Below are positions 33,202 to 57,489 of a DNA stretch of 64,000 nucleotides, piece by piece. The DNA is from Seiridium cupressi (lineage: Eukaryota > Ascomycota > Sordariomycetes > Amphisphaeriales > Sporocadaceae), in assembly GCA_036674765.1 (NCBI GenBank), contig JARVKI010000010.1, positions 615,014 to 679,013 on the forward strand. Direction: 5' to 3'. Numbering within the stretch: position 1 is the stretch's first letter; each line of letters opens with the position of its first letter. The translations under genes were made by a program, and so were the position numbers. The notes beneath the pieces were generated by a model. The model was not told the DNA's origin. It saw only the letters and a list, made by a program, of their open reading frames with translations, and searched no databases.

Positions 33202-34664
33202 TTAATCACCCTCCCAAATAACCTCGAGAATAGCAAGGGCAGCTCCACCAACCGAGAAACAGCGAATGGTTCCAAACCTGGGATCCGCCGCTTTGAGAAT
33301 GTCCTGCCATTCGGCCACGGTGCGCAATCGTGAATTGTTCGTTGTCAACATCAGCAGGTCAATGAAACTATACAGCAAAATGGCTCAGCGCTTGCCTACA
33401 ACCTTAGGCGGGATTTCTAACGTACTAGATGGACCGCTCCATTGTCAGCGGCAAGGATCCAGGCAGCGGACTCAGGCTCTCATTCACGAGAATTCGTGCC
33501 CCCTTGCGCAGCGCAGGCACCTGTGCTCGTAGTATCCGAATAACATGATGGTCCGGCCAGTCGTGGAACACCCAGCGGAACAGGTAGACATCTGCTGTGG
33601 TGATAGGCTGCGTTGAGAAGAAATCGTATGCCTGATATCGAACCCGGTCGGACTGCAGTACCTGCTCCGCTGCTGCCACCACATCTGGGAGGTCCTGGAC
33701 AACCATATGCAGCCGCGGATGTGCTTTGCTGAGTGCTTGGCTGACATAGCCATCTGCACCCCCAACATCTACCACCATGGCTGCACCGAGCGTATCCCAG
33801 TCGTAGCCCTCAATAAGGTATGATGCCGAATATTCCGGTACGCCAGCTGAGTACAAGCGCATCGCCTTGCTGAACTGGTCGGCCTTGGAGGGTTGCATGC
33901 ACAGGTAGTCGAACATGCTCTTGTCGGTACTGTGTGCCAATGCAAATCCCTGCTGGGCATTAGCCCATATAGCGGTGACAGGCGTTTAGTAGTCACATAC
34001 CGTATGGTTCGGCTCGCCGTCTTTGAACATATCCAACGCATCCGCAGTCTACTCACGAATCATTAGATCGGTAACTCTCATGCTGTTCGACTAGGCAGCG
34101 GAAGGACGCACTCTGGCAAAGGAGCCGTAGAATTCGTTGAATGACTGGCCGAGCCCCGCGCGCACGATCTCATCGGTAGCAAGTTTCTTTGATCCTGCAG
34201 AATGCGCCACACAACCGTCCTGAGGCTCTGCGAAGAGTCGATAGAAGGACATAGCGAAGCGTATAATACGTTTCAGGACGTTGGCGTCTAGGCCTGTAAC
34301 TTTGGCCAGCTCCGTAAACGAGATTGTGCCTTCCAAGGGTACCTTGCGGGCGATGTCATGACGCGAGCTGACTTGTAGGCTGGTAGCATTGTACTGTCGA
34401 CGTGTTAACTCCTTTCTTAGGTACCTGCTTGAGGCACACCTGAGGTAGCATGCAGCCGATAGGACCCTGCAGCAGGTCTAGTAACTCTTGAAGAGCATCA
34501 ATCGCAGTGCTGCGCGCGAGCTCTGCCTGTGGCGAGAGGTTCAGCGTTATGGGCCCATCTACGTCGAAGGAGGGCTGTGGTAGACTATTCTGCTGTAGGT
34601 AGTTGACGACGGTGCTGGTGTTGACACTGATAGTAGTCGCTAACTGGTCCATACGCGGCGCCAT
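33202..34664 (-). CDS. SAM-dependent O-methyltransferase (family 2), RiPP-cluster candidate
   Basis: Five exons: 34664-34440, 34393-34112, 34048-34001, 33949-33426 and 33367-33202, with introns of 46, 63, 51 and 58 bp, giving 414 residues. An apparent pair of in-frame stops near 34100 disappears when the 63 bp intron is removed, giving SFARTADALDMF. N-terminal half: winged-helix dimerisation domain (GTISFTELAKVTGLDANVLKRI). C-terminal half: SAM-binding VVDVGGADGYVS, QDLPDVV, and the catalytic His in FRWVFHDWPDHHV, then ILVNESL and the ending LAILEVIWEGD. All catalytic elements are intact. Fungal relatives methylate hydroxyls on secondary metabolites. It is the leftmost gene of the group with the UstYa genes, precursor, tyrosinase and P450, and could O-methylate a hydroxylated tyrosine or another alcohol of the product. 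Confidence 0.88.
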
Positions 34665-34851
34665 AGCTATATATTAGTATGATCGCAAACCACAGTCTAG
34701 ATAGATTTTATCAAGTATCTCAACTACCGACAGTCTTATCGTCGTAAGGAAAGGTGGCACTTGGATTACAAGCAGTGTATTATATACGAATAGGTGGAGG
34801 GTTAAATCTACTTTTCAGTGCATTTAATAAGCTACCTAAAATTAAGTTTCA

Positions 34852-35455
34852 TCAAGGCATAGAATCGAATATGAAACCCGACCCATTGATTACTCGCCAC
34901 TGTGTTGCCCACTCCTGGATCTCGCTGAAGTCGCGGCACTGTCTGCCCAACATGACATCGGGGTAGTGACCCGCATATAGTGGCTCGATTCCAACATCTG
35001 CATTGCAGGTCAGGCTCTGTTGCAGATAGTCAAAGCAGTGGGCAACATGGTCAGGCTCGCGCACGCCTGCCCTATTAAACTGCTGTCCGATTGCGGCCGA
35101 ATGCGCGGCGTAATATGCACGTCGCACCGTGTACTGGTTCCCGGCAGTTAGTGGATCAACTCTTCAACAATCGGGATTGGAGCTCGCGGAATCACTTACC
35201 AGACAATGCAACTGATGGAATATGCCGATCACAGATATCTCGGGGGCCAAGATGGGATGCTTGACGTAGCCGAGGCCATCTACCAATAGTTTAGTAGGAT
35301 GCTGGTCAGCAGAACGGAGACTGCTCACTAGTTCATAGACCGACACGAGTCGAATTCAGTGCCTCCATCGAGCTTCGAGTACCGCGGACTTCCGTAAAAT
35401 TGACGGAACATGGTGTTTTGGACACAATCAAGATAAGATAGCAGCGGGCAATGAT
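34852..35455 (-). pseudogene. UstYa-like (DUF3328) oxidase, copy 1, N-terminal part broken
   Basis: DUF3328 proteins such as UstYa catalyse oxidative macrocyclisation of ribosomal peptides in dikaritin pathways. The last exon (35133-34852) and the preceding one (ending 35200, 66 bp intron) join as FHQLHCL-YTVRRAYYA. Both signature HxxHC motifs are present: HQLHC, and HVAHC followed by FDYLQQSLTCNADVG. Upstream, FYGSPRYSKLDG lies in a different frame from SVYELVSSLRSADQHPTKLL, with the change near 35342. Just further 5' lies a 19-base G run (35456-35474), and no membrane anchor can be found beyond it. An intron at 35371-35310 could formally rejoin the frames but would delete the conserved segment. 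The catalytic half is intact; the N-terminus appears lost or frameshifted. A sequencing slip at the homopolymer is possible. Confidence 0.7.
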
Positions 35456-35474
35456 GGGGGGGGGGGGGGGGGGG
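35456..35474. repeat. 19-base G homopolymer
   Basis: An uninterrupted run of 19 G lies at the 5' side of UstYa copy 1 and disrupts its reading. Such runs slip in replication and in sequencing, so its exact length is uncertain. Confidence 0.9.
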
Positions 35475-36344
35475 AAGATCCACGCATGAAGGAGTAAAGG
35501 GGTTGAACGTGAACGAGAGGACAAGTAAGTCAGGCTCAGATACGTCGCTGACCAGAGTCGTGTAGGACGGGTGAGGAGTATCTCTATCGACCAGTTGGGT
35601 ATTACAAGAACAGTTTGCAATTTCACATCGTGTTTACACGTCATCGTTTGGGAGCGGTGTGCCTAACAGAACCCACAATATGTTATACTTTCTACATTTA
35701 GAAGTCAACAGCGTAAAACGTTGGGTCCTTCTGTCCTAGATACCCCCAACAACATATGTCTGTATAGGGTGGTGGCACTGCATCAGCCGTGTGGGGACCA
35801 GGACCTTCTCCTGCCGGGGACTTCGGGAAAGCTTCAAGGAACAGTACCGACTACTTCATATGTATGGGCTTGTACTTTCACCGCTGTCAAATGAAAATAA
35901 TAATCCCTTTGTTATCCGAGCGCTCCGTCATCACTATTTGCTCGTGTATTCCTTTATACGATGATAACTTCTGACAGACTCCTCAATTCCCCACTGTCTC
36001 ACGAGACAAAATGTGCTTTGAGCCCTAATTGTGTGAGATCTTCGTCTCTTTAGTTCTCAATTGTCTTAGTATCTGACAGATCTTCATAGATTACGATATG
36101 AGCACAATGAGCGCTAATACATCAGTAGTAGCAGCAGAACAACGACCCCGATGTTACATTGATACCTCTCCTATAGATATCCTCGCTATGTACTACTCCG
36201 TGCTCGCCAGTATACAGGCCACCACTACCCCTAAACTCAATCTCCCCCAACTCTCATGGCTAACCAGATAGGCAATTCCATGTTCCGTCCATCCGCGGAA
36301 CCCAGCTCATCGGCGTCCACTTTCTCCGGGTTCTTGATTCTGCG
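35475..36344. other. Intergenic region between UstYa copy 1 and the precursor gene
   Basis: About 870 bp. The right end (roughly 36240-36341) still reads in the precursor frame beyond its stop and holds a degenerate third repeat. The remainder shows nothing recognisable. Confidence 0.5.
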
Positions 36345-36455
36345 CTAATATGTATCACCAACAACGTTGAAGTCGACTTCATCCGGGCTCTTGATGCTGC
36401 GCTTATATGTATCGCCCACAATACCAAAGTCAACTTCATCCGGATTCTTGATGTT
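36240..36455 (-). repeat. 57-bp tandem repeat of the precursor gene (2 clear units plus a degenerate third)
   Basis: Unit 1 spans 36455-36399, unit 2 36398-36342 and the third begins at 36341. Units 1 and 2 differ mostly by conservative substitutions (Asn/Ser, Gly/Asn, Ile/Val). The third keeps IKNPE.VD and then diverges, and it lies beyond the stop codon at 36347-36345. Confidence 0.8.
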
Positions 36456-36610
36456 TCGTTTTTCTTTCTGGCTCACAGAGTCAAAGTTGATCGTGCCTGA
36501 TTCTGTTAACTAAGAGCTTAGTGCATCATTTTGCTGTAATTCATACGGCTTGAACTTAGCGGCGCTGCGCTGGCAAGGACACCCAGCAAGAGCATAGATA
36601 TAACACGCAT
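36345..36610 (-). CDS. Repeat-containing secreted RiPP precursor peptide, dikaritin (UstA)-like
   Basis: Two exons, 36610-36547 and 36496-36345, with a 50 bp intron carrying a CTAA branch site, give 71 residues. The N-terminus MRVISMLLLGVLASAAP is a signal peptide. A 13-residue segment ends in KEKR, then a 19-residue unit (PDEVDF..., ending VGDTY then KR) and a second unit with the same layout (PDEVDF, VVGDTY) that stops exactly after its Tyr. Lys-Arg pairs are Kex2 sites; dikaritin precursors such as those of ustiloxin, phomopsin and asperipin have just this build of signal peptide plus KR-separated repeats with a Tyr-containing core. Candidate cores are FGIVGDTY and FNVVGDTY or their C-terminal part. 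The stop replaces the Lys codon of the KR present after unit 1, and a diverged third unit follows in frame. It sits between two UstYa genes, which strongly supports the call. Confidence 0.8.
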
Positions 36611-37407
36611 GTTGAGAACTTTGTTGGCCTGTTCTGACTGTGTTCGGAAAATGAGATGCACTAATATGCAGGATATATGTTGATGAGGTCTGCGTCGGAG
36701 ATTCGATAGGATGGAAAGCTAGCTTAATATACATATTTTCCCACTACATACATACGCCCAAAGGAACAAGCTAGATGGTTGGGGGCCTGATGTGAGCCAA
36801 AGTGAGATCTCAGTGAGATGCTTGTTCCATATACCCCGTGGAACCAACGTTGCGCCAACTAGAAAGTGCATCCACCCGGCACACCCATGCATAAAAACTC
36901 TTGCATAGCGCTGATTCCTTTTATTGGAATGACGTTTCAATGGATAGCAGTGTAACGGACGTCCTACGCTGACGTGCAAGACACGTTGGTGGCAAATCCG
37001 GATGCCTTCTTTTTAGCATGACTGTTGATCATGCCAATGGGGGCAACACAGGGTCGCATCTTACATCTCCGGACTTGGTTTCGAGTCTTGGCAAAATGGG
37101 TCACTAGGCTTTCGCCCTTCCCTTGATGTCGGCTAAAAGCTTGCTGTGGTGTACGCTCGACATGGAGTCTGCAGCAGTAGACAGTTCTTGCGAATTAGAA
37201 ACATTCTCATTGCCAACACGTACGGGTTAAGTAGACGACGTTGTAGTATGATTTACCTGTCAACTCCTATTGAAGAAAATTATCATATAGGGATTATAAA
37301 AGTTTGCCCTCTGAGCTTGCATAGCAAGCCCTAGTATCAGCTCCCTACAATAATATCTATGCATCGTTGTTTTTCCGGATTATTTCGGTTTCGTCCCGCT
37401 ATTGTAA
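36611..37407. other. Precursor gene promoter region / UstYa copy 2 downstream region
   Basis: About 800 bp, no supported gene. Short open frames on both strands lack recognisable motifs. Confidence 0.4.
36723..36731 (-). promoter_or_regulatory. TATA-like element before the precursor gene
   Basis: On the minus strand the string tatattaa lies about 115 bp upstream of the precursor ATG at 36610. Its distance is suitable for a TATA box; support is positional only. Confidence 0.3.
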
Positions 37408-38285
37408 TTACATCGCGGGATTGAGGTCTAGGCTCTGTAGAATGACCGCCCCGTAGTCAATAGGTTTAACACCATCCTCGCCGTTTTCTCTACAAACCCC
37501 AAAGTGATCTCCGAGCGGAATATCCGCAACCCTATCTCGGTAACACGCCGTATTATCAGCAGCCCAAGCACGTAGCTGGTTCAAGTCTTTACATTGATGG
37601 AGCTGCCCGTCGCCGGCGGTATGGTCGCCAAACGAGTATAGCGGCGTGTTGTCTGCGTTACACTGCACGTTCTGCCGGAGGGCATCGAAGCAATGGTCGA
37701 CGTGCGATCCGGGGTGATAGGTGAATGGCTTCCCATCAACTGCTTCCCAGAATGTCAATCGCATTATGCGCTACCTGGTTAGTATTTCTTGATCATCGTT
37801 CGTGCATCTGAGACATACTATGCAGTGGAGCAGATGGTATGCTTCAAGAAGGTATACAGCCTTCGTTTTGTCGCCTGGGTAGTAGCCGCTCAGCGGCCAG
37901 CCCAGTGCCGCTGCCCATTCTCGGTCCACGCTCACGATGCCGTGCGCTGGGTTGATTTCATCCCAGAGGCTGTTGGCATCGGAGCGGTTTACGGGGCTGT
38001 ACGCTGTATTCCACCAAAAACGCTTATAGATGGTGTTGAGTTCATCAGTTTGGGCTGTTTGTCAGTTAACAATTGGGTTTTCGAAGCGAAAGGCATACCT
38101 AGTTCGGGTGGAGACCGTTCTCGTTGCATCCAGAAAGGCCAGCTCAGTGAGAGGAAGTTTGTCACCAGCAGCAGAGTTATCCCGTACGTAACCCATCGTC
38201 TTCGCAGCCGTCTATGGTTTGTGCACTGCTCTTCCCCGGAGCAAAGGTGTTCCGAGTGTTCGAATAAAGGCTGATAAGAAGCCAT
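37408..38285 (-). CDS. UstYa-like (DUF3328) oxidase, copy 2, intact
   Basis: Three exons, 38285-38099, 38054-37819 and 37770-37408, with short introns of 44 and 48 bp, give 261 residues, a normal length. After a cytosolic N-terminus with RRLRRRW there is one membrane anchor (VTYGITLLLVTNFLSLSWPF). The luminal part carries NRSDANSLWDEINPAHGIVS and the two signature motifs HLLHC (interrupted by the second intron, continuing IRIMRLTFWEAV) and HVDHC followed by FDALRQNVQCNADN. The His/Cys motifs are essential in characterised UstYa proteins, which form oxidative cross-links in ribosomal peptides such as ustiloxins, asperipin and phomopsins. It is divergent from the tyrosinase gene, sharing about 550 bp of promoter, and next to the precursor. 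Its probable job is cyclisation of the Tyr-containing core. Confidence 0.88.
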
Positions 38286-38838
38286 GGTGGAAATATTCCA
38301 AGTCGGGGAGTAACGATGAGAAATTTAGGGTTTTCAGAAGCGTCGAAAGAACAGGAACACGCTAAATGCGGGAGGTATCAGAAGTTGTATTGTCGCGCTT
38401 CTGTAAGGTACTGAGCGTGGTGGCTGATACTGTGAGATCGACTAGGGCCTGCAGCTTAACAAAAAGGGGTCCTTACGTGGACGGCGTGGGCTTATTGGTT
38501 CGTCTCTACTGACTGATAGTGTGGTTGATCATCTCCCAAAATCTTATCACTTTCCGTCATATGCTACATACTCAAACTCCAAGCTGTCCTGCATGGGCCA
38601 AAAATATTGCACTATTAATCGGAATATTGATCTGTCATACGAAGAGAGGAACGACAGGACATCCTCTCCAGACCAGACGTAATAGTTTGAGTACCCTCCG
38701 CCCCCTTACGACGTCAGAGATTTGGTACATTTCCTACAGGAAAGAGTTGTGCAGCGACGACGCTTCTCGCCTACTTCGCCTCGCAAGTACTCACTTCGTA
38801 ATTGCTATTTTTTCAGTACCTCTGACTTCGTAATTGGA
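38286..38838. promoter_or_regulatory. Shared divergent promoter, UstYa copy 2 / tyrosinase
   Basis: 553 bp between two divergently transcribed cluster genes; coordinated expression is likely by position. I could not identify a specific factor site with confidence. Confidence 0.4.
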
Positions 38839-39540
38839 ATGCCTTCGAGTAGTCATTTTCACGAGCACGATGAAACTAGCGCGAAGCCTCTTCTCGACAA
38901 AACAGAGGCGGATGACCCGTCCTCGTCGCTGCAGAAGCGCTATGTGGCAGCTGCCATTGCTGCCCTCGTGCTAATAGTGGCTTCACTTCTTCTCTGGGCT
39001 CTATCACGTAAAATTGAGAGTAGCAACAACGACGGAGTATGTAGGCAGCCCGCTGTCCGTCGCGAATGGCGGGCGCTTGGCAGTCTAGAGCGCCTTGAGT
39101 ATCTTCGCGCAGTCAAGTGCCTATCATCCATCCCCTCATCCGTCTGTAACGGAACTCTGCATGATGAATTCGCATATATTCACAGCAAAATTGGCAACTA
39201 TTGTACGTATTGGGATCTTCTCCTTCGACAGCTTTGCTAACCTGACAAAGCTCATGAAACAGCCACATTCCTGCCGTGGCATCGATACTTTATACATATC
39301 TACGAGAACACGTTGAAGCAAAGATGCCAATATGAGGGAACTCTTCCGTGAGTAGTGTTCCGCAAACTTCTGATTACGATCTAAGATGGTATTAGATACT
39401 GGGATTGGACGCGCGATTGGGCGAATTTGACCCAGGCACCAGTATGGAATGCTACGGAAGGGTTCGGGGGCAACGGCAACACAGATCTGCCCATCACTGT
39501 AGGCGATGGTTTGTGTCGGGAGGTTCGTGGGACTCTCTAA
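38839..39540 (+). pseudogene. UstQ-like tyrosinase, C-terminally truncated (CuB site missing)
   Basis: Three exons, 38839-39202, 39251-39347 and 39396-39540, with introns of 48 and 48 bp, give 201 residues against roughly twice that in the family. An N-terminal anchor (VAAAIAALVLIVASLLLWAL) is followed by REWRALGSLERLEYLRAVKCL and the CuA site: HDEFAYIH, then YSH formed by the first splice, then FLPWHRYFIHIYE. After that come YWDWTRDW and GFGGNGN. The frame stops at LCREVRGTL, before the HxxxH and distal His of the CuB site. No intron restores a CuB-containing reading downstream. Tyrosinases of this group hydroxylate or oxidise Tyr in dikaritin cores. A one-copper remnant should be inactive as an oxidase, so it is probably a pseudogene unless a partner supplies the rest. 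Confidence 0.75.
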
Positions 39541-39892
39541 AATAGGACTGCCCCAGATGTTAAACAGATTAATTAATCAATCAGTCAATCCCAATTGCCG
39601 GCATCAGTGCACGTAGCTCATACCGGATATGTAATGATTCGCTATGGAACCAATAAGTGCCAAAACCACTGAGGTCCAGGTTAAAAGAAATATTCGTGTC
39701 GGAGTTCTTGTCATATCTGTCCTTGACATCCAACATATTCGAATTGAACTTTTACAATATCGACGATAACTCAGCGCGCCGAATGATCTCTTCCACCGGA
39801 AAAGCATCAGTCGAGGATGTAATTCACAGGAAGCAACGATTAGTCCAATGCTCTCGTAGTGTGAATTGAGATTTATCTATATTTCTGTCTTG
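39541..39892. other. Convergent spacer with a minus-strand coding-like fragment
   Basis: Between the tyrosinase stop and the P450 stop. On the minus strand, about 39755-39590, a frame reads with coding-like composition and contains FNLDLSGFGTYWFHSES. This weakly resembles the GTYWYHSH copper segment of multicopper oxidases, but the His pair is not conserved. It may be a gene remnant; confidence is low. Confidence 0.2.
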
Positions 39893-41560
39893 CTATTCGG
39901 TCTGGGCTCCGGGAAGAGCGCCAGCAGAAACGTTCTGGCCCCCATGTTGATTGCCACGCCACTCGGCCTCCTTTCCCCTGTTGGTGATGACGAAATACAT
40001 ATCTGTATGGATTGTGAATCCGACACACTGCTCATTGAAAGGCTTCGCTAAGCTGTAAGGCTGGAGATTGTACTTCCAGAGTGTCTCGAAAACGCCTTTC
40101 TGGAGCTCCATCATTGCAACCCCTCGACCTAGACACCCGAATCTACCATACCCAAATGCCAGTCCTACCGTTTCCGTCATCAGAGTTATCCTATCGGCCT
40201 CTGCAGTGCTTGTATTTGCGGGTAGCCATCGTTCAGGCCTGAAGACTTCGCAGTCGTCTCCGAATATCTCAGCGCGTCTCATAAGTCCCCAGCTGTTCTG
40301 AGCAATCTGCGTGCCACTTGGAGCGAAGCACTCCCGACCATCTACCGAGATCTTGGTGCCTCCCGGTGGCACTTGTTTTGCGAGCAGACCAGTAACGGGT
40401 GGGTATACCCGTAAACCTTCTTTGATGCAAGCTTGTAAGTACGGTAGTTGACGCGCTTCTGAATCGCGAACTACAGGTCGGCTTATTCGACCGGCATTGA
40501 TTTCCCGTGCGATCTCATCCAACAGCCTAGAGAGCACCCTTGGAGTCGTGCTAATGAAATGCAAGGTCACTCTTAACGCAGAAGCGGTGCTATCGGAACC
40601 AGCAGTGATCTGCGTCAGTGTCTCCGATTCGAGCTGCTTTTGCGTCAAGCCGTGGTTGATGAACGACCCAAGCATATCCTTTCGCTCAATAGGCTTATCT
40701 CCGAATCGCTCTCTGACTCGATCGCTAGCGAAGCCCATCACGCGCCCCAGGCCACGCTTGTCTGTCGACTTGGGTAATGCTGCCTTGATCGCCGGAATAT
40801 TCATGAGCTGGGTAAGCTCTATGTAGACTCCAAAGACGATGATGGCTGGCAAGAATTGGGCCAGGTTCTCCAGATATCCGAAAGGATCATCGTCCATGCT
40901 CAAGAAGCCGAAGGCCTGGCCGAATGCGATCTGTGAAATGGTGTCAAGTGTGAAGAATGCCGTGATTCGCGACAAGTCGACAGTTCTGAACTCGTTACGC
41001 TCAGGCGACGTAAGGTACTTCTCGTCTATCAGCTTGAACATGTCTAAAAGCTTGTTGTCAATGTCATCCTCCATGTGCTGATTCTCTTTGCCGGAATATC
41101 CCGATGTCATTCGTTTCCGCAAGTCTGCGTGCTTATCTTCATCAACATGGCTGGTGATGTTGTCGACCTCGGGGTGAAGCTTAAGCGCCCCATACCAGAT
41201 GCCACGGGTAAAGTCTGAGCGGACTGCGTTCATGCGACGAAGTAAGTGCGGGTCATTCGTAATGAGCATTCTTGGACCAATGCGGGCAGTTGATCCTGTC
41301 AAGGTTGGTGTAAGTTCTGCCGAGGAGCACCGAGTCTGTGACGACTTACCATAGTCTTTGTTGAGCTGCGTGAATCGCTTGTTCATCTCCCCAGAGCCTT
41401 GCGTGTTGAGAAGCCATAGTCGAGACCAGCCCGAGGACCAATGGCCCTTGAAATCACCAAGAGCCCGATTTCTCTTGATGAGCCTTCGTGCAAGCCAGGT
41501 GAACAACACAACCCCAACTAACGCAAGTGCAGACGCTTGCGTAATCACGGGCGCACGCAT
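39893..41560 (-). CDS. Cytochrome P450 monooxygenase (RiPP-cluster candidate)
   Basis: Two exons, 41560-41350 and 41295-39893, with a 54 bp intron, give 537 residues. The N-terminal anchor is ALALVGVVLFTWLARRLIKR. Hallmarks are all present: I-helix ITAGSDSTASALR with the acid-Thr pair, the ExxR of KEGLRVYPPV, the PERW region, and the haem loop FGYGRFGCLGRG with the Cys ligand. The style (pisatin demethylase/benzoate hydroxylase-like fungal P450) is common in secondary metabolism. Ustiloxin and related clusters also contain a P450. It converges on the truncated tyrosinase. Its substrate is unknown; oxidation of the cyclic peptide is the simplest contextual reading. Confidence 0.9.
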   Translation of the reverse strand: MRAPVITQASALALVGVVLFTWLARRLIKRNRALGDFKGHWSSGWSRLWLLNTQGSGEMNKRFTQLNKDYGKSSQTRCSSAELTPTLTGSTARIGPRMLITNDPHLLRRMNAVRSDFTRGIWYGALKLHPEVDNITSHVDEDKHADLRKRMTSGYSGKENQHMEDDIDNKLLDMFKLIDEKYLTSPERNEFRTVDLSRITAFFTLDTISQIAFGQAFGFLSMDDDPFGYLENLAQFLPAIIVFGVYIELTQLMNIPAIKAALPKSTDKRGLGRVMGFASDRVRERFGDKPIERKDMLGSFINHGLTQKQLESETLTQITAGSDSTASALRVTLHFISTTPRVLSRLLDEIAREINAGRISRPVVRDSEARQLPYLQACIKEGLRVYPPVTGLLAKQVPPGGTKISVDGRECFAPSGTQIAQNSWGLMRRAEIFGDDCEVFRPERWLPANTSTAEADRITLMTETVGLAFGYGRFGCLGRGVAMMELQKGVFETLWKYNLQPYSLAKPFNEQCVGFTIHTDMYFVITNRGKEAEWRGNQHGGQNVSAGALPGAQTE

Positions 41561-45992: not shown

Positions 45993-47094
45993 TCAAAGAT
46001 CGCGGTATCTTGGGCAAGTGATACTCCACACGAGATTGCCAACACATGAGTAAAGCAGCGCCTCAATATAAGCCCGGAGGTCTTTAGACAATGAGAAATT
46101 GGCTATAGTGCCGTCAACTATGCGGCGATATACGTCCATCCAATTCTGGATTTCTGCCCGACAGAGTGAGATGGCCTCCTCTTCGCTGACTGATCTTTCC
46201 TTCATGATGACCCAGACTGCGTTGAACACATAGGGCTGGCCTGCTCGTTCGGCATCCCGCTGCTCCTTATCCCACGAGTACAAATCGTTGGTAAGTCCTA
46301 ACACGGCGTATGCTGGTTTGGCCAATTCTGTACACAAGTCGTACTCTTCTTCCGGAATTGTGAGAGCCATACCGAAAGTGAGCATACCGAACCAGAAACT
46401 AGCAACAGCATGAGCATTATCCCGCAAGAACATGTATGAAAGCTGGGCATAGCAGGCCATGTCATGGTTTGCAACTTACAGTTCTCCAGCATCGATGATC
46501 CGAGCTGGGACATATTCCTCTAGCGTATTCCAAGGCTGTATCCTTGTTCGCGAAGCTGATTGCACGAATGTCGCCCAAGACCTCATCATTATCGTGGCCC
46601 GGGTCGGGTCCAGGGCCATCAGCTCTGCAAGAATGTGGGCCTGGAGGCGCTTTTCTGGGCGAGTACGTGTGCTGACCTTTCGGTCTAAAGCATTATCAAA
46701 AGTCTCTAGGATGCCGGAAGTTTCTCTTCTGAATTCTTCATCGTCCAGGTTTTCCATTTCATCTATTTGCGTTTAGTCTCTCTGTTGGTGAACCACCCGG
46801 GTAGGTATTACCGTCATATAGAAACGCATATTCATTTGCGTACGAAAGGATCTCTAATCTTTCAGGTAAACACTCCGGGATTGTGGCACTTGTGAAGCTG
46901 TAAGGGTGGCTCAGTCCTCCTTTGTATCCGTCCACTGGCAGAGGTGACACATGCTTGGCCCAGTCGTCCTGGACCCGAAGTGTGCCCCTGATCTCTAGGA
47001 TTGATTGCTTGTGTACACGAAGTTCGATATCGCCTGCGAGCCCATGCGTCTCATACGTGGCTTTATCTATCACTTCTGAGTGACGGAAGTCCAT
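45993..47094 (-). CDS. Class I terpene cyclase, stand-alone homolog of chimeric di/sesterterpene synthase TC domains
   Basis: Three exons, 47094-46812, 46762-46480 and 46398-45993, with introns of 49 and 81 bp, give 323 residues. The metal-binding aspartate-rich motif DDEME is assembled across the first intron in YAFLYDDEMENLDD, and the second motif is NDLYSWDKE (NSE type). An Arg-Tyr near the end (CPRYRDL) caps the active site, preceded by SCVGNLVWSITCPRY, which is typical of the N-terminal cyclase domain of fusicoccadiene- and ophiobolin-type bifunctional synthases. Those continue into a prenyltransferase domain; here the gene ends directly after the cyclase, so it must use prenyl diphosphate made elsewhere. 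All class I motifs are intact. It is divergent from a P450 with 688 bp between starts, forming the core of a probable terpenoid cluster. Confidence 0.88.
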
Positions 47095-47782
47095 GATGCG
47101 GAATCGTCCGTCTTAGCAGCGCAAGTGGCCAGCGACAATGGGGAGCGGGAGCGGACGAACTTTAATAGATTTTGTTAAACAGAACGATAAGCGGACAATT
47201 TACTGGCAGTGAAAGCTGCAATGATTTCTCAATGGATTTAAATAATTACTAAAGCTTTTTGTCACCTTATTACAGTACTGTCTATTCATGGCACATCTTA
47301 TCCATTATGAAGTGGATACGAAGTCTTTAGCGATGCTGCAAAATTCGTGAGCAGTTCGATAGACGAGGGACGCGACAAGCTCATGTAGCCTGGCTGCATT
47401 AGCGTTAACAAGGAGTCTGATGTAATAAACGGTGTTGACAAGGGACCTGCGCTTCGGTCAGGTCCGTCGCGTATACATGCTATTGTAAGCACCGTCTTCA
47501 TTGGGTGACTAATGTGGATCGTGCAAGTATCGTTTATTGCGCGTCCGACTATTTCGTTTCTGGCCGCAGAATCCCAGCCACAGCACCGTCTGCTGGAGGG
47601 GTAATTCTATCGATGCAGTCATGGAGGATTCCGCTGGATGATTCATAGTACTATTGACCACTCTCCGCATTCTATCTAGCCAGCGTAGCGTACCTATTAT
47701 CTGGCGTTGAGTTTCGTGCACCACCACCCACAGTCACCCCTCTTCACCATTATCAGGGCACCTTAGTCTCGCAAATCATTCC
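47095..47782. promoter_or_regulatory. Shared divergent promoter, terpene cyclase / P450
   Basis: 688 bp between the starts of the cyclase (-) and the second P450 (+). The arrangement favours co-expression. No certain factor site was recognised. Confidence 0.45.
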
Positions 47783-49801
47783 ATGTCATCGTACAAGTAC
47801 CGAAAAATGTTGTTCCTTACTTCTCTTGCCTCCTACGCAGACGGTTCCTTGTCTGTCTTGATCCTCTTCGCTGGTTATACCATTGGCCTTGTGATATACC
47901 GTCTGTATTTTTCGCCATTGGCTAAGTTCCCCGGGTCTAGGCTTGCGGCTGCCACCAGTTGGTATGAGTTTTACTATGATTGGTGGCTGGATGGACGATT
48001 TGTCTTTGAAGTTGAACGTTTGCACAACAAATATGGTCAGTCGCAATATTATGAAGGTAGGACACATCGTCTAAATATCAGTTCTAGGACCTATCGTTCG
48101 GATTAACCCCAATGAGCTATCGATTCGCGACCCAAGTTTCTACAATGAGATCTATGTCAGTGAGAGTAAACGGCGATCTGAACACTATGACGCATGGGCT
48201 GGGGGTATCAACTTCGACGGTAAGAGAAAGAAAATGATATTCTATTTATTGCCAATCTTAACGTAAAATAGGGTCATTCATACTCACGAAAGGTCATGAA
48301 TTACACAAGAAAAGAAGAGAGCCATTCGACCCATTTTTCTCCAGGAAAGGCATCACATCCTTGCACCCAACTCTTGCAGAGCTGTCCATCCACTTAGAGT
48401 CTCGGCTTCGGGACCTAGCAGGCCAGAATCGAGTGATCAAGCTTGATCACGCATTCTCTTGTTTTGCTCGAGATGTCATAGGCACAATGTGCCTGGGTCG
48501 TGACGATTATCGTGATCAGCTCTTGCATAGTCCTGAGTTCTCGTCGGAATGGTACGTCCATATCTTCCTTTAATTGAAATGATGTAACGATCACCATGCT
48601 CTAGGTATGATCTTATTCACAAGGTCATACAGCAGACCCCTCTATTCACTCAATTCCCCTGGTTGATCCAGTAAGTTGCCCCGCTATCAACTTGCCCGTG
48701 ATCTAACTCCCCAATAGAATCGTTAGCCGTGTGCCCGAGAGAGTGCTCCTGTGGGTATTTCCTCGGGGACAGGCCTTTAACACCTTAACGGAGGTAACTA
48801 AATCAAAGGCATATACTCATCCCAAAAGCTGATAGCATTGCAGACTGCAAGAGAACACATCCGAAGAGCTTTGGACGGAGCATCCGAGAAAAACACCAAA
48901 AGCTCTACTTTATTTCACCAGCTTGTAAATGGCGATATGCCAACGTCAGAGAAGACGGAAAATCGGTTAACAAAGGAAGCCATGGTAATGTTCGCAGGTG
49001 GCACAGTGACAGTGGCCCGCACGCTGACCGTAGCATCGTACTATATACTTTCACGCCCCGAGCTTCGTCTCAAGCTGGCAGATGAACTGGAGTCTACCAT
49101 GGCAGAATGGCCCCAAGTTGTGCCGAGTCTGGCCGAGCTTGAGCGCTTACCATTATTGCAGGCCATCATCAAGGAAACCTTGCGGTATGAAGTCCAATGC
49201 ATTGATATGTCGCTGCTGTTGCAGCACAAAGGATCCAGTTACTGATGGCTTCCTACAGTCTCAGTTATGGGGTGATGCATCGATTGCCTCGAGTTTCTCC
49301 CGACGTCCCGATCCAGTACCGGGAATTTACGATTCCGACAGGTGTAAGTGTCCGCCATAAACCCAGGTGCTTCTCCATGGTCAACACTAACTGCTCTCAC
49401 ATAGGTGCCTGTCGGCATGTCAGCCTATTATATGCATTCCGACCCCACAGTGTATCCCTCACCTGATAGATTCATCCCAGAACGCTGGATTGGTGACATT
49501 GATCCAGCGATGCGCCGAAGCTTCGTGCCATTTTGCAAAGGCTCAAGACATTGTATAGGCAAGAAGTATGCACTCCTGATGCCCGTCAAATCCATATGTT
49601 TCGCTGGCTAATGATTTACTCTTTCTTAATTTTAGCTTGGCTCAGGCTGAAATAAGTCTTCTTCTTGCGGTACTGTTCCGGCCCGAAGGTCCAGGCTTTG
49701 AGCTCTTCGAGACCGATGAGAGCGATGTCAAGATGGCCCATGATTTCCTGATTCCACTTCCAAGACTTGATTCAGAAGGCGTTCGAGTGATAGTGCGCTA
49801 G
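47783..49801 (+). CDS. Cytochrome P450 monooxygenase, nine exons (terpenoid-cluster candidate)
   Basis: Exons: 47783-48035, 48088-48219, 48272-48551, 48605-48670, 48718-48793, 48844-49184, 49259-49343, 49405-49565 and 49636-49801, giving 519 residues. The N-terminal anchor ([20 protein letters not shown]) precedes [16 protein letters not shown]. Then [20 protein letters not shown], the ExxR of KETLRLSYG formed across a splice, the PERW of RFIPERW, and the haem loop [20 protein letters not shown] with the Cys ligand. The I-helix reads [11 protein letters not shown] where AGTDT/AGTET is usual, so the acid of the acid-Thr pair is missing, which is notable though not fatal in P450s. The overall style matches trichodiene-oxygenase-like fungal P450s. 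Its position divergent from the cyclase suggests oxidation of the terpene product. Confidence 0.88.
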
Positions 49802-50110
49802 CCTTTGTGGAAAAGGCTTGATTGCAATAGAGCCAAGGCTTCATGTTGCGTCTCTCTCTCATATAGTAATTCAACATCAGTTTTCGATAAAGAGACATGC
49901 AAACGCTGTGAGCCCCAGTTCACCGCCGAACTCCCTATAAAGCGCTAAACGGACGATGGTCCTAGCGCGTCAAATCCTCGATTAGGGCCTCTGTCTAATG
50001 CGACTCGGGGGTCCGGGGTCCGAAGCACAGGGGACGTTCACCTCACATGACTTCCGACTTTGGTCAAATCAACAACAAACAAGCTCGAAGGTTGCTCCAA
50101 GCACCAACAA
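49802..50110. other. Spacer before the Zn2Cys6 regulator
   Basis: 309 bp between the P450 stop and the regulator start on the same strand; no gene or repeat. Confidence 0.4.
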
Positions 50111-52034
50111 ATGCCTGCATCGTCCAGTGCGCGACGCATGAAGAGCCGCACGGGCTGCGTCACCTGTAAGAAGAGACGAGTATGTGCGGACGAGGGTTGC
50201 CGTACCGCTGGCGAGAGTTGACTGATGTTTTGAATAGGTCAAATGCGACGAGGAGCTGCCCAACTGCCTTCAATGCACTAGACGGGGCTTGCAGTGTCCT
50301 GGGTATCAAAAGCCACTCAATTTGAAATGGAGACCTGATTTTGCCTCTCGATTTGAGCGCCCCCGAGCTCCCAATCAGTATGCTAGGACCTCAGACGCGT
50401 CTGCGATGGTATCAGGCCGTAGAATCCATGCCATCCACCACGTCGTCCCCGAGGACGCATCAACCGCCGGAATAAGGCCGCCCAAAGGTGCGACATGTCC
50501 GAGCCCAAGCTTAGGTTATGTCTTCGATCGGCCAATGACGATGTCAGCTATACCGTCTCAGTCCCTTACAGCGACTAGGCTTTTGGGACATGCCTCGATA
50601 TCCATGCTGGAGCAACCTTGGCCTGGGGTTCTCAAGGAAGATAGTTGCCGGTACACCGTCTTACATCAGACTCTCCAGCATCAGCCAACGTGGCTCGTTT
50701 CTTATTATATCAATCACATGGCCAAAGCCTGCTCATTATTTGACTCGGATCTGAACCCCTTCAAAATGGTTGTAGTGTCGATGGGATTGGAACATGAGAC
50801 ACTGGGACTACTGATCCAAAGCGCGGCAGCCATTCACATGTCCTGGAAAGAGCTATCTCCGAGGAGATTGGCTGTTTCCATCCACACCAGCGCCATCAAC
50901 TCTTACCGAAGAGCCATTCAGGATATTGGGTACACTGGAGTATCAGACTCGCTGTTACTGAGCGCCTTACTCCTTGGCTTCACCGCACCTTGGCACGAAA
51001 TCTGTGACGTTGGCACTATCCATGTGCACGGAGCAAGGATATTGTTCAAGCACTGGCTAGCTGGGTTTCTCGATAACGGCAAGCACGAATCTGCCTTCAT
51101 TCTTAGCTGTTTCATATATTGGCAGAGCATGTTTTCCTTCATCGGCAACGATCCAGCAGAAAACCTTATTCACCACATGTCCCTGGACGGTCCGATTGAG
51201 ACCTACTATAACATGCCGTTTTCACAGAATCCTAGATACCAGACCCAAGCTATGGCAATCGACGGTATCACCTTAGACCTCTTCAATACAATAGGCAAGG
51301 CGGCTGCCCTTTGCCGAGCCCGACAGCTCGGTATTCAGCTGCCAGATTCTCAGGCTCATGCCGAGCAGATCGAGACTTGCCTTCTCAAATGGCAGCCACC
51401 AGCTTCCGCCCACTTGGTTGATCTCCAAGATCCCAACACCTCACCCAAGCACATACTACATTTGTTAGATGCCATTCGACTGGCAGCACTACTACAACTC
51501 TATTCTAGCTCTACTTCATTATTAAAGAAGCGTATGCTCAACTACGAAGGCTGTCCAGAAATATCGACCACAGCTCCCTGCTTCGACTTTGCGAACACCT
51601 TACATGAGTTGGAACAGTCGGCGGACAAACACACAATCTGCAACGGGCAACAGAGGTTCCTTCGGGCGCTTGCCATTCATATACTAGAGCTCATCTCTGG
51701 CATTCCTTCCTCCTCGGGGACTTGTACATTACAGCCAGTGCCACTGACAATGGTTGCGGCCTGGATTACACAACTTCCGGAGCCATCACCATCTCAATCC
51801 GCTTCGGAAAGAACCGCGGGTTCTAAGCACGACGAATATATCGCAGTTGAGTTCTGGCGCATGTTTATTCGGACTAGATTGCAAAACTCTGATGACTATA
51901 TGGGAACATTACTACCACTTCGACGAGTCCAGGCATTGATAGAAGAGGTCTGGAGGCGGAATGGCACTGATGGGGTCCAATGCGACTGGATCACACTAAT
52001 CACAAGTGACGAGTTCCGAACGTTTCTTGCCTAA
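50111..52034 (+). CDS. Zn2Cys6 fungal transcription factor
   Basis: Two exons, 50111-50179 and 50238-52034, with a 58 bp intron inside the zinc cluster, give 621 residues. The binuclear cluster starts at about residue 16: CVTC, then CKKRRVKC joined across the splice, CDEELPNC, CLQC and the last Cys in RRGLQC. All six Cys are present. The C-terminal part (about 190-600) has the fungal-specific regulatory fold (TF_2 type), with blocks such as MGLEHETLGLLIQSAAAIHM and EVWRRNGTDG. It lies between the P450 and the ABC transporter, so a cluster-specific activator is the natural inference; whether it also controls the RiPP-type genes is open. Confidence 0.9.
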
Positions 52035-53221
52035 AATGGGAACCACGCCAAATGGACATACAATACCAAGGCCTCGAGTCGCCGCGAAGACAAGAATTAC
52101 CCTCAGCCCCTGCAGGCAGACACGCCTTACACTCTCTTCCACTGGCTTACTAGAGGCCTCAGGTAGGCGGTCCTGCTAGGGTCTCTTATAGCATCGGTGC
52201 ACAGGTAACTTGGAGTAGCAATCCAAAGCCCAGGCGTGGGAAGACCAGAGATTCACCAGTCTGGAAAAATACTATGAGGTTAAACCCACATTTAGTGGGG
52301 AAAGGCGTACATCTCTGCTAGTCCAGATTTGGGGGTAAAAGTGCGAGAAGTTCGAGACTATTCCTAATCCAGGGGATTAAGTGCGATGACAACTGGACTG
52401 CTGTATCCCGAAGTTGGCGTCGAAAGTGCGATCCAATCAAACATATTGGACTGTTCGGAGTAATCAATCAATCGGATAGACCTCGTGCTATGGGATCCAG
52501 AAAGTATCTGTCCAAGCAATCTTTGTTTCGGCTGTCACCGTCTATTACTCGAAGCACTTTCTCGTTTGTGCCGGACCTAACTGTAATCAACGGAGCAAGA
52601 GGCTGTGCAAGCAGAGCTTCCTCGACGAAGATTATTCTATCCGAAAATCATGAATCGCCAAGCCGTACAATGGCAATTTCTGAAGTTGTAAACCTTGCGG
52701 GGCCCGAGGCGTCCGGGCCGCGGGTGCCGTTACGTCGCCACACCAGGCACGCCGCCTTGGCAGGTGAAGCACGATGAATCAGCGAGCTAGCGAAGCGGTT
52801 AGTGGCAATGCGGTGATTTCAGCCATCTAGGTAGGGCAATATGTCCAAAGACGGTGCTTTTCTTGACAGCACCTTACTCTGCTTGCAATACGTCTGTCCT
52901 AGACGGTTGTTGGGACTAATGGTACTTGCTATGCGGGAGTCATTCGAAAACACTGCTCTATCATCGTTGAATCTCGCTCGTGCCGAGGTCCCGACATACT
53001 TGGCCAAGGCCATCTGCGTCACGACAATTATGAAGCAATACCTACGCCAACCTTGAGACACTATATCACTCCCCCTGCGTCAACTCTCTCAGCACAAATC
53101 TGATTATGTTAAGGCCAGCTCAAAAACGGAACTATCATCCATCACGACTTTGTCTGATCCATCCTACAAGCAAGTTCAGACTCTTCGGTCACTGTTAAAT
53201 CAGGCCACCTCGCGCACCAAT
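52035..53221. other. Intergenic region before the ABC transporter
   Basis: 1.2 kb. A 71-codon plus-strand frame at 52841-53056 (ending YLAKAICVTTIMKQYLRQP) and a 95-codon frame at 52490-52777 have mildly coding-like composition but no recognisable family. Either may be a gene remnant. Confidence 0.35.
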
Positions 53222-56200
53222 ATGGCCTCGATATGTACGGAAAAGGAGTCAAAGAACCAATCCTCTCCTCGTACCGCCGCCGACACGCCCAATAAGCCGG
53301 AGGAGGCGCATCGAGATAATAACGGCTCCTCAGGATCTGGTGGTTCCTATCTGGCATGTTGCCCCTTTGTCTTAGCGCTTCGCTGCTCAAATCTAACATT
53401 AATTCCAGCGCACTTTCACCTATGCACAGCCCAGCGACATCGTACTAGAGGTTGTAGCATTCATCGCTGCAGCAGGCTCTGGTGTTGGCCTCGCCATTGT
53501 CAACCTCGTCCTGGGAAACTTCATCACCATTCTCAATAGATTCGTGGCTGGTCAGAGCACCACATCGGATTTCATGAGAGACGTCTCGACCTACTGTCTG
53601 TACTTGGTATACATTGGCGTAGCACGTCTGGTTCTTGTCTATACCTATACAACTTTGACCACCTATGTTGCATACAGAATCGTGCGCAATATTAGGCAGT
53701 CATTTTTGAAAGCTGCACTGGCGCAGGAGATCGCGTTCTTCGACCATGGATCTGGAGGTTCAATTTCAAGTATGGTTTTCTTTCTATATTAGTAGAGTAT
53801 CTACTGACTTTACTTTTATCTAGTGCAAGCTACTACAAACGGAAATCTGATTCATTCAGGCATTGCAGAGAAGCTCGGGCTTTGTGTACAAGCAGCAGCA
53901 ACTTTCATTGCAGCATTCATTGTTGCTTTCACGAGTCAGTGGAAGCTTACACTTATCTTAATATGGTAGGTTGCTTTTCTTGACCACTGACGGAGTTGTC
54001 ACATCATGAGTACCGCTAACAATGTCCCAAATTCGATAGGCTCGCACCGGCACTCATAGTACTGATGGGGCTTGTCGCCACGGCCGAAGCCAAGCTTGAA
54101 GCAAGGATACTTGAGATATATGCGCAAGGAGGAGCTTTCGCCGAAAGTATTCTATCAACTCCTAGAACTGTGCATGCGCTTGGCATTCGAGAGCGCTTGG
54201 TGGCTCAATATGACGAGTATCTTTGCCAAGCTAAGTCCCTAGGGGACAAGAAGAGCCCCCTGTTCGGAGCGCTGTTTAGCATCGAGTACTTTCTTATCTA
54301 TGCTGGCATGGGTCTAGCCTTTTGGCAGGGAGTCAAGATGGTGGCAAACCAAGAGGTGCCTTCTCTTGGAACAGTTTTCACGTATGTATGGACGAACCAT
54401 TCACTATATCATCTATGCTAATCCGCATTTAGTGTTCTCATGTCAGTCATCATTGCCACAATCTCGGTCACGACGATCGCCCCCTATTCCATATCATTCG
54501 GTCGTGCGGCTACTGCAGCAACCCAACTCTTCGCCCTGATCGACAGGAAATCCTCTATCGATCCGTTCGACCCGTCAGGAGAGAAACCAACCAAGACACA
54601 AGGCGTCCTTGACATCGAAGGCATTATGTTTAGTTACCCCACCAGACCTGGAGTAACCATCCTCGATGATCTTTCGCTCCATATTCCTTCGGGAAAAGTC
54701 ACAGCACTTGTGGTGAGTCTTGAAGATATTTTCTCGGTCGACATACGCTGATATACTATTAAGGGAGCAAGTGGTTCGGGTAAGAGTACTATAATTGGCT
54801 TGATTGAGCGGTGGTATCAGCCGTCCTCTGGTGTCATCAAATTGGATGGCAAGCCCATTGACAGATTAAACCTCAATTGGTTACGGACGAATATCCGCAT
54901 GGTACAGCAAGAGCCCGTGCTCTTCAATGGCACAGTCTTCGAAAATATTGCATACGGCTTGGTCGGCACCCAATGGGAGAATGAGTGCCACGACAAGCAG
55001 ATGGAGAGGGTGAGCGAGGCAGCCAAATTCGCATTTGCCCACGACTTCATTATGGACTTGCCTCAACGTTATGATACCCGGATAGGCGAGCGCGGAGGAC
55101 TCCTCTCTGGCGGGCAAAAGCAACGTGTGGCAATTGCTCGAAGCATTGTCTCGGACCCAAAGGTGCTTTTGCTCGATGAGGCGACCAGCGCCCTGGATCC
55201 ACAGGCTGAAGGAATTGTCCAGAAGGCTCTCGATAACGTCTCGAGGGATCGGACCACCATCGTTATCGCCCATAAACTTGCGACGATCAGGGACGCTGAT
55301 CATATTGTGGTGATGGCAAACGGACGTATTCTCGAACAGGGTACACACGACGGTCTTCTAGCTTCAGCCGGTGCTTACTCTAGACTCGTCGAAGCACAGA
55401 ACATCGCATCAAAGGCAAATACCGAGGGTTTCGAGGAGAGCATAGAGTCGGAAGACTATTACAGCGAAGATGACTTGGCGGCTAAGAGAAGCTTGACACG
55501 ATACTCAAAGACAAGGAGACAGGAGCTCGAGCTTCTTGGCGACAGGGATAGTTACGACAATGCGAAACACAAGGGTTTAATCTCGTCAATAGTTGGCCTC
55601 GTGCGGAGAACTCCTGAACTAAAGTGGCAATACTTGATCATTCTCGTGGCATGTCTGGTAGCCTGTACGTATCCCTATAGATTTCATAGTTCACTCTCGT
55701 TGTTTATGCTAACCCTGGAACAGCTGCCGTGTTCCCTAGCCAAGCACTTCTCCTGGCCAACGTCATGGATGTATTCCAGCTAGAAGTTGGTCCCATGCAA
55801 AGCCGCGGAAACTTTTATGCGCTGATGTTTTTAGTTCTTGGAATTGGTTGCCTGGTGTGTTACTTTGCCATGGGCTGGGCCACGAATATCATGGCGCAAA
55901 CGATGAACAAGAAGTTCCGAGAGACGATTCTCGACAGCATGCTTCGCCAAGACATACAATTCTTCGACCGACCTGACAACACGACCGGTGCTCTTGCCAG
56001 CCGATTAGACTCGAATCCTCAAGCAATTATGGAACTCATGAGCTTCAATGTGGCGTTGATTCTCATCAATATTTTCAATGTGCTTGCCTCTAGCATTCTT
56101 GCTCTCGTCATTTCGTGGAAGCTCGGTCTTGTGGGTGTTTTTGCTAGTCTCCCTCCGATGCTATTCGCAGGCTACGCCCGCATTCGGCTCGAGACAGCGA

Positions 56201-57489
56201 TGGATGCCGGCAACTCCAAGCGGTTCTCCAATAGTGCAGCTATTGCCTCCGAGTCCATCGCAGCTATCCGAACCGTGTCCAGCCTTGCCGTCGAGCATAT
56301 GATGCTCAATCGGTACAAGGATGAATTAGGACACGCCGTTCGCCAATCTGTCGGACCCCTGCTGCATATGATGTTCTGGTTTTCTTTGACACAGGCGATT
56401 GAATACTTTATTCTTGCACTCGGCTTCTGGTACGGATGCAAATTACTTTCCAAGGGCGAGATCATGTTTTATCAGTTCTTTGTCTCATTCATGGGCACTT
56501 TCTTTTCTGGCCAGGCCGCCAGTCAGATGTTTAGCTATACTAGCAGTACGTGTTCCCATTATGTTCTAACCTCGGGAGACTACCATGAAGACTGACGCTC
56601 AATAGGTATCACCAAGGGTCAAAGTGCGGCAAATTATTTGTTTTGGATTGAGTCTTTGCAGCCACTCATTCGTCCGGACATTGCCGAGAACCTCAACCAC
56701 GGGCCGGCCAATGGTGTGGGCTCGATCGAATTCGATAATGTGCAATTCTCTTATCCTCTCCGTCCTGATGCAAGAGTTCTCCGTGGTATCAATCTGGACA
56801 TCAAGCGTGGCGAGTTCGTTGCCTTTGTCGGGGCCTCGGGCTGCGGGAAGAGTACAATGATTGCCATGCTAGAGCGTTTCTACGATCCGACATCAGGCTC
56901 GATCGAGATAGACTGGGAGCAGCTGACTGCCATCAACCCCAAGCTCTATCGAAGACATATTGCTCTCGTCCAGCAGGAGCCAACACTCTATCAGGGCAGT
57001 ATACGAGAGAACATATTGCTTGGAAAGGACAGAAACGAAGACAGCAACGATGCCAGCGACGACATCGAAGTAGAGCAAGCTCTGCGTGCAGCCAATGCGT
57101 GGGACTTTGTCATGTCGCTTCCGGAGGGCACAGCGACATTGTGTGGCGTGAGCGGTTCCCAGCTTTCCGGTGGCCAGAGACAGAGAATCGCTATCGCACG
57201 ATCGCTGATCCGCAAGCCGCAGGTCCTGCTTCTAGATGAGGCCACCTCTGCTTTGGACACGGCCTCAGAGAAACTGGTTCAGGCGGCTCTAGCTGATGCA
57301 GCGACCTCGGGAGAGCGCATTACGATTGCTGTTGCTCATAGGTTGAGTACGATCAAAGACGCCGATCGCATTTGTGTCTTCTTCGGAGGCAGTATTGTCG
57401 AGTCTGGCACTCACGACGAGTTGCTTGCTCTGGGGAAGATGTACAAGAAGATGTGCCAAGCGCAGAGTTTGGACAGAGAGGCTGCTTGA
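53222..57489 (+). CDS. ABCB/MDR-type full ABC transporter
   Basis: Exons: 53222-53353, 53409-53769, 53824-53965, 54040-54381, 54433-54712, 54764-55664, 55724-56545 and 56606-57489, giving 1287 residues with (TMD-NBD)x2 layout. NBD1: Walker A GASGSGKST starts exactly at an exon boundary, then signature LSGGQKQR, Walker B VLLLDEATSALD and H-loop IVIAHKL. NBD2: Walker A GASGCGKST, LSGGQRQR, VLLLDEATSALD and IAVAHRLST. The first intron appears to use a GC donor (53354), since a GC-AG splice gives GSYLRTFTYA, which the family expects. All catalytic motifs are intact. Fungal MDR pumps export lipophilic metabolites and confer self-resistance or drug resistance. Its place next to the regulator fits export of the local terpenoid or cyclic peptide. 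Confidence 0.9.

What the first reader, a model, noticed from the sequence alone, without database searches (positions are those of the whole stretch)
33202..41560. Candidate undescribed dikaritin-type RiPP cluster
Seen: O-methyltransferase, two UstYa-like genes with HxxHC motifs, a tyrosinase-type gene, a P450 and a small secreted repeat peptide with KR sites, all within 8.4 kb. Known: this set matches ustiloxin, phomopsin and asperipin clusters, where UstYa proteins cyclise KR-released cores. Inference: a cyclic peptide with a VGDTY-type core, unlike YAIG (ustiloxin) or FYYTGY (asperipin) cores.
Basis: partly seen in the sequence, partly recalled or inferred. Interest (0 to 1): 0.92.

Follow-up and report, generated by a model that had tools for sequence, protein, structure and literature searches.

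The report
Dikaritin-type peptide gene cluster, Seiridium
A relative of a canker fungus carries a small gene cluster that probably makes a cyclic peptide cut from a repeat precursor; it is a new member of a known kind of fungal peptide pathway, with a new precursor family and one oxidase gene that lacks its second half.

Summary
Minus strand: a five-exon O-methyltransferase (414 aa, reads through once spliced), a UstYa-type gene with no convincing N-terminal exon, a 73-aa precursor with one 44-nt intron, a complete UstYa-type gene (261 aa; HLLHC, HVDHC) and a P450. Plus strand: a tyrosinase-type gene, truncated (only profile positions 5-90 of 214 match; no second copper site found). The genome is Seiridium-like. 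The precursor is real: Seiridium cupressi has an annotated protein of the same length differing at one residue, and Hypomontagnella monticulosa a 73-aa relative (54% in the alignment). The shared repeat ends FxxVGDTY (V is F once), followed by KR or the C-terminus. Best reading: a dikaritin-type RiPP cluster; Kex2 frees two 17-mers and the copper oxidase UstYa2 crosslinks their C-terminal part. Whether it still works without a complete tyrosinase is open; P450 membership is doubtful. Kind: new member of a known kind (22% of 7,878 fungal Kex2-repeat precursors have such an oxidase gene nearby). Its gene content (two UstYa, tyrosinase, O-methyltransferase) resembles the lichen Clan R1 clusters, in which no repeat precursor was found.

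The parts
33202..34664 (-). O-methyltransferase (PF00891), 414 aa, exons 34440-34664, 34112-34393, 34001-34048, 33426-33949, 33202-33367; reads through once spliced
   Evidence: canonical introns of 46, 63, 51, 58 nt chosen among several listed by alignment to own-genome paralogues
34852..35300 (-). UstYa-type gene 1: exon with HQLHC ending at 35200, 66-nt GTAAGT...CAG intron, exon 34852-35133 with HVAHC; N-terminal part unresolved (start given is approximate)
36345..36610 (-). Kex2-repeat precursor, 73 aa, exons 36547-36610 and 36345-36502
36405..36455 (-). repeat unit NIKNPDEVDFGIVGDTY, followed by KR
36348..36398 (-). repeat unit SIKSPDEVDFNVVGDTY, C-terminus of the precursor
36285..36341 (-). 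degenerate further copy of the 57-nt unit beyond the stop codon, not part of the protein
37408..38285 (-). UstYa-type gene 2, 261 aa, exons 38099-38285, 37819-38054, 37408-37770; hydrophobic N-terminal stretch, HLLHC and HVDHC; complete
38839..39540 (+). tyrosinase-type gene: membrane-anchor-like N-terminus and first copper-site region (PWHR, YWDW), then a stop; second half missing
39893..41560 (-). cytochrome P450, exons 41350-41560 and 39893-41295; reads through; cluster membership doubtful

Best explanation
A dikaritin-type RiPP cluster. The 73-aa precursor enters the secretory pathway through its signal peptide (inferred), Kex2 cuts at the two KR sites (inferred) and frees NIKNPDEVDFGIVGDTY and SIKSPDEVDFNVVGDTY. 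The complete UstYa2 (two HxxHC motifs, by family a binuclear copper oxidase) crosslinks the conserved C-terminal stretch FxxVGDTY, most likely from the phenol oxygen of the last Tyr to a beta-carbon upstream, as in ustiloxin and asperipin; trimming and O-methylation by the neighbouring methyltransferase follow (inferred). Because the tyrosinase lacks its second copper site, any product more likely forms by the asperipin-like route (UstYa-type oxidase alone) than by the ustiloxin route.
For: Precursor relatives in two further species with identical length and the same end; repeats bounded by KR or the C-terminus; precursor lies between the two UstYa genes. UstYa2 is complete; H136, H139, C140, H164, H167 and C168 are invariant in 15 aligned members; it belongs to a nine-member Xylariomycetidae clade (support 100/100). 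The best of five AlphaFold2 models of its closest relative puts the two motifs on neighbouring helices with pLDDT about 90, as described for the copper enzyme CctR (PMC12435403, passages). UstYa-type genes are enriched next to Kex2-repeat genes (PMC7329392, passages); the four-gene asperipin-2a cluster has one such oxidase and no tyrosinase (PMC6514808, passages). O-methyltransferase reads through.
Against: Tyrosinase truncated, while PMC7329392 calls a tyrosinase indispensable for cyclisation of ustiloxin and phomopsin cores. UstYa1 has no convincing N-terminus. Only two full cores, against an average of about five (PMC10512285, passages). No Seiridium name appears among the 52 UstYa2 relatives, so I could not show that S. 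cupressi keeps precursor and UstYa2 together; the neighbourhood of the H. monticulosa precursor was not visible either. The other four AlphaFold2 models are poorer (mean pLDDT 58.0-76.7). No transcript or mass data.
Confidence: 0.6

Rival explanations
1. A decaying, no longer productive dikaritin cluster: the tyrosinase has lost its second half and UstYa1 perhaps its N-terminus, so the pathway is off although precursor, O-methyltransferase, UstYa2 and P450 still read through.
For: Truncated tyrosinase; unresolved N-terminus of UstYa1 beside a run of 19 G; degenerate repeat unit beyond the stop codon; no Seiridium name among 52 UstYa2 relatives.
Against: Precursor identical to S. cupressi in 72 of 73 residues; UstYa2 complete and conserved; O-methyltransferase reads through with four canonical introns. 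The S. cupressi and H. monticulosa precursors end after the same unit, so that stop is not a fresh break.
Confidence: 0.3
2. The precursor is a Kex2-processed linear secreted peptide (signal or pheromone-like) and the UstYa genes serve another pathway or are chance neighbours.
For: 78% of 7,878 Kex2-repeat proteins have no such gene within 15 genes (PMC7329392); UstYa genes are plentiful in this genome (42 exon-level matches). A DNA pattern coding DTYKR is not enriched genome-wide (21 matches against 31 for the reversed control).
Against: The precursor sits directly between two UstYa genes; a Tyr ends each full repeat; no Pfam match at E<=0.01 for P0001 or P0002, so none to mating factors; a second UstYa-linked precursor in the genome has repeats ending S[ST]DTY-KR.
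Confidence: 0.08
3. The P450 belongs to a separate function and the cluster ends at the tyrosinase remnant (compatible with the best explanation, so its odds are not exclusive of it).
For: Of 448 relatives passing, 120 were listed; the named ones are mostly Dothideomycetes (classes recalled), with Anthostomella pinea and Xylariaceae sp. FL0016 the only Xylariales I recognise besides Seiridium. The top eight UstYa2 relatives are all Xylariomycetidae, and none of those eight species is named in the P450 list.
Against: Immediate neighbour, convergent with the tyrosinase; 328 hits were not listed, many listed ones are unnamed, and only the 7,995 candidates sharing most words were scored.
Confidence: 0.55

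Closest known systems
Asperipin-2a cluster (aprA, aprY; Aspergillus flavus)
   Same: Repeat precursor and UstYa-type oxidase; core that starts with Phe and ends with Tyr (FYYTGY; here FxxVGDTY, my reading)
   Different: Four genes with a transporter and a reductase (PMC6514808, passages), no methyltransferase or tyrosinase; three Tyr in the core, one here
Ustiloxin and phomopsin clusters (dikaritins)
   Same: Signal-like leader, KR-bounded repeats, UstYa-type genes, tyrosinase-type gene, methyltransferase
   Different: Tyrosinase truncated here; two full cores instead of 16 or 8; core not YAIG, YVIG or YVIP; PF00891 O-methyltransferase; no peptidase or transporter recognised in 33-42 kb
Lichen RiPP Clan R1 (Parmeliaceae, PMC12048977, passages)
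   Same: Two UstYa-type genes, tyrosinase, O-methyltransferase; UstYa2 has relatives in Imshaugia (56% over 89%) and Usnea (61% over 69%), both Parmeliaceae (family recalled)
   Different: Clan R1 also has an FGE-sulfatase, its O-methyltransferase lies between the UstYa genes, and no repeat precursor was found there; orthology not tested
CctR (cyclochlorotine hydroxylase, DUF3328; PMC12435403, passages)
   Same: Double HxxHC motif, membrane anchor
   Different: Acts on a non-ribosomal peptide and hydroxylates rather than crosslinks

Membership tests
Dikaritin RiPP cluster | Precursor with N-terminal leader and repeated cores bounded by Kex2 sites | tested here: met
   73 aa, two full repeats ending at KR or the C-terminus; relatives in two other species. 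Signal peptide judged by eye and hydropathy
Dikaritin RiPP cluster | UstYa/DUF3328 protein with HxxHC(x)nHxxHC (class-defining in the newer definition quoted in PMC12048977) | tested here: met
   UstYa2 complete
Dikaritin RiPP cluster | Multiple DUF3328 genes | tested here: inconclusive
   UstYa1 has both motifs; N-terminus unresolved
Dikaritin RiPP cluster | Tyrosinase (in the five-gene list of Ding et al. as quoted in PMC12048977; [quoted passage not shown]
   Gene present but truncated after the first copper-site region
Dikaritin RiPP cluster | Methyltransferase | tested here: met
   PF00891 O-methyltransferase; relation to UstM or PhomM not tested
Dikaritin RiPP cluster | Transporter or peptidase in the cluster | tested here: not met
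   No such Pfam match among the ORF pieces scanned in 31.6-42 kb (shorter ORFs and every exon were not scanned); ABC transporter at 53-57 kb and M20 peptidase at 23.8-25.1 kb lie beyond other genes
Dikaritin RiPP cluster | Side-chain crosslinked peptide product | not testable with these tools
   needs LC-MS
Lichen RiPP Clan R1 | Two UstYa, tyrosinase, O-methyltransferase, FGE-sulfatase, with orthologous signature genes | tested here: inconclusive
   Content similar, no sulfatase recognised; orthology could not be tested
Fungal mating pheromone precursor | MF_alpha-type or pheromone-type repeat, as a rule without a UstYa neighbour | tested here: not met
   No Pfam match; UstYa genes on both sides

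The most novel reading that the evidence does not exclude
This precursor family is the missing substrate of an old, widely inherited UstYa + tyrosinase + O-methyltransferase pathway: the Xylariomycetidae cluster and the lichen Clan R1 clusters are the same pathway, whose short precursors with few cores (about 70 aa, one intron, ending GDTY) escape annotation, and whose product is an O-methylated, Tyr-crosslinked peptide.
Probability: 0.2. Interest if true: 0.6.

Novelty: new member of a known kind. Interest (0 to 1): 0.42.

Why it matters
A review of December 2022 counts only five reported dikaritins (PMC10512285, passages), against 1,758 Kex2-repeat precursors with a UstYa-type gene nearby (PMC7329392). 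A precursor seen in two fungal families with a conserved end gives a testable core and predicted masses. If the same short precursor lies next to the UstYa genes of lichens, it would supply the missing precursor of Clan R1.

Tried and rejected
Rejected: that the O-methyltransferase is a pseudogene. Its in-frame stops first looked like decay, but each falls in a canonical GT-AG intron and the spliced protein aligns across the joins with own-genome paralogues.

Rejected: that the stop after the second repeat is a fresh break. A degenerate unit follows it, but the S. cupressi and H. monticulosa proteins end at the same point.

Repeated at 0.9 with controls: the UstYa2 stretch is found (1.31) and three weak stretches appear upstream of the UstYa1 HQLHC exon (1.37 at 35479, overlapping the G run; 1.15; 1.04). 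None joins cleanly, so the N-terminus of UstYa1 is unresolved rather than shown to be lost.

Led nowhere: PDB sequence search with UstYa2 (6 hits up to E=1, best 0.063, none named as this family); Foldseek of the AlphaFold2 model against PDB (61 matches, none at E<=0.001); NCBIfam (0 families for UstYa2 and both precursors); a further copy of this precursor in the own genome (1 match, itself); a genome-wide DTYKR-coding pattern (21 matches, reversed control 31, so no enrichment; three lie together on C19); the C56 cluster (UstYa exons and an O-methyltransferase) held no KR repeat by my scan; literature for VGDTY, GDTYKR and DTYKR (5 and 1 papers, none fungal by title) and for Seiridium with RiPP or gene-cluster terms (8 of 2,720 and 3 of 3 listed, read by title and start of abstract only; none is about a Seiridium RiPP by title).

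Full report
Source. The window is the last 64 kb of contig C10 (615014-679013 of 679013) of a 45.4-Mb fungal genome in 228 contigs. It is Seiridium-like: the precursor matches a Seiridium cupressi protein at 72 of 73 residues and the P450 matches S. cardinale at 94%. Which species it is I cannot say.

Genes. On the minus strand, in the order of transcription: P450 (41560-39893, one 54-nt intron that the S. cardinale protein also skips), UstYa2 (38285-37408, three exons, 261 aa), the precursor (36610-36345), UstYa1 (about 35.3k-34852) and an O-methyltransferase (34664-33202). The tyrosinase-type gene (38839-39540) is on the plus strand, divergent from UstYa2 and convergent with the P450. The O-methyltransferase first looked broken, but its stops lie in four canonical introns; the spliced 414-aa protein aligns across the joins with paralogues.

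Precursor. MRVISMLLLGVLASAAPLSSS starts like a signal peptide (by eye; hydropathy 1.86). After a 44-nt intron come a short unlike stretch ending in KR, then NIKNPDEVDFGIVGDTY-KR and SIKSPDEVDFNVVGDTY at the C-terminus. The annotated S. cupressi protein has the same spliced length and sequence but for one residue. The H. monticulosa relative (E=2.9e-10; 50% by BLASTP, 54% in the alignment) has three units: AISPDAVDFSSFGDTY-KR, a deviant NAQSTGRVAADVAY-KR, and SIKSPEEVDFDLVGDTY. So each protein keeps two good units of three, and the four distinct good units share P[DE]xVDFxx[VF]GDTY. The database search scored 3 candidates and returned these 2 proteins. The own genome has no other copy. A scan for in-frame repeats ending at KR, RR or a stop found 1 in the window and 0 in ten random 64-kb sequences.

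UstYa2. The search found 52 relatives among 278 candidates; the top eight are Xylariomycetidae (59-81% identity), followed by lichen fungi, Aspergillus, Paecilomyces and others. In a tree of 27 of the 52 plus the window protein, it falls in a nine-member Xylariomycetidae clade (100/100), beside the other eight (that fork 91/80, below the tool's mark for strong support); this fits vertical descent. The six motif residues are invariant in 15 aligned members; in a wider alignment of 35 relatives without the window protein, H136, H139 and C140 are invariant and the other three at least 90%. The best of five AlphaFold2 models of the Annulohypoxylon relative (mean pLDDT 81.8; the others 58.0-76.7) places the motifs on helices 133-152 and 163-178. 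CctR, a DUF3328 hydroxylase, binds two copper ions per monomer, assigned to this motif pair (PMC12435403, passages).

What is damaged or unresolved. The tyrosinase matches PF00264 only at positions 5-90 of 214 and is the only C10 row among 51 exon-level matches, many of which reach positions 209-214. Two introns in it are canonical, but it ends at a stop, and three regular expressions for a second copper site found nothing in six frames of 38.5-44 kb. UstYa1 keeps both HxxHC motifs across a canonical 66-nt intron; upstream of it only weak hydrophobic stretches exist, the best one beside a run of 19 G, so its N-terminus is unresolved.

Context in the genome. PF11807 gives 42 exon-level matches. 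Of nine other UstYa loci that I read, with about 1.5-kb flanks or 10 kb (L001-L008, L032), three hold repeats ending at KR: C19 (DLAKDSIIIKSTDTY, DLEKDNIIIKSSDTY and DLAKDNIIIKSSDTY, each followed by KR, after a signal-like start), C67 (GEEEIWNSGKYVDSK twice) and, by a looser setting only, C111 (DEAIPFYP-KR twice). The C19 repeats also end in DTY-KR. This may mean that a DTY end is a preferred substrate feature, or it may be chance: a DTYKR-coding pattern is not enriched genome-wide (21 matches, 31 for the reversed control).

Mechanism. Shown: gene structures, motif conservation, precursor conservation. Established for the family: Kex2-bounded repeats, UstYa-type oxidases needed for cyclisation, ether crosslinks at Tyr, copper dependence (PMC7329392, PMC6514808, PMC12435403; passages read). 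Inferred: secretion, Kex2 cleavage, the core FxxVGDTY, the Tyr crosslink, O-methylation. Because the tyrosinase is incomplete, the asperipin-like route with a UstYa oxidase alone is the likelier one if the cluster works. I give 0.6 to a working dikaritin-type cluster and 0.3 to a decaying one.

Known or new. PMC8403587 (passages) reports an ustiloxin-like RiPP cluster in all Hypomontagnella species studied, Hypoxylon rubiginosum and H. pulicicidum; it may or may not be the one that holds P0002. PMC12048977 (passages) describes lichen Clan R1 with two UstYa genes, tyrosinase and O-methyltransferase, says that O-methyltransferases had never been reported in dikaritin clusters, and found no repeated precursor. 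UstYa2 has relatives in Imshaugia and Usnea. The resemblance in gene content is a lead; orthology was not testable here. I therefore file the locus as a new member of a known kind with a new precursor family.

Noticed in passing
G000:C19:126.6-126.9k (L005, L033): A second UstYa-linked Kex2-repeat precursor: signal-like start and three repeats ending S[ST]DTY-KR; the UstYa gene beside it has HLLHC but VLDHC in place of the second HxxHC.
   Followed up: partly
G000:C67 (L008) and G000:C111 (L001): Two more UstYa loci with repeats ending at KR: GEEEIWNSGKYVDSK twice, and DEAIPFYP-KR twice.
   Followed up: no
G000:C56:98.4-103.5k (L032): Cluster with UstYa exons of probably three genes and an O-methyltransferase (41% identical to the window's, 37%); no KR repeat found.
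   Followed up: partly
window 45993-57489: Next door: a terpene synthase C-terminal domain (PF19086), a P450 piece, a Zn2Cys6 regulator and ABC transporter exons; looks like a separate terpene-type cluster.
   Followed up: no
window 62001-64000: GC falls to 22% in the last 2 kb, which is also the contig end: an AT-rich, repeat-rich block.
   Followed up: no
window 35456-35474: A run of 19 G between UstYa1 and the precursor, where slippage or assembly error is likely.
   Followed up: no
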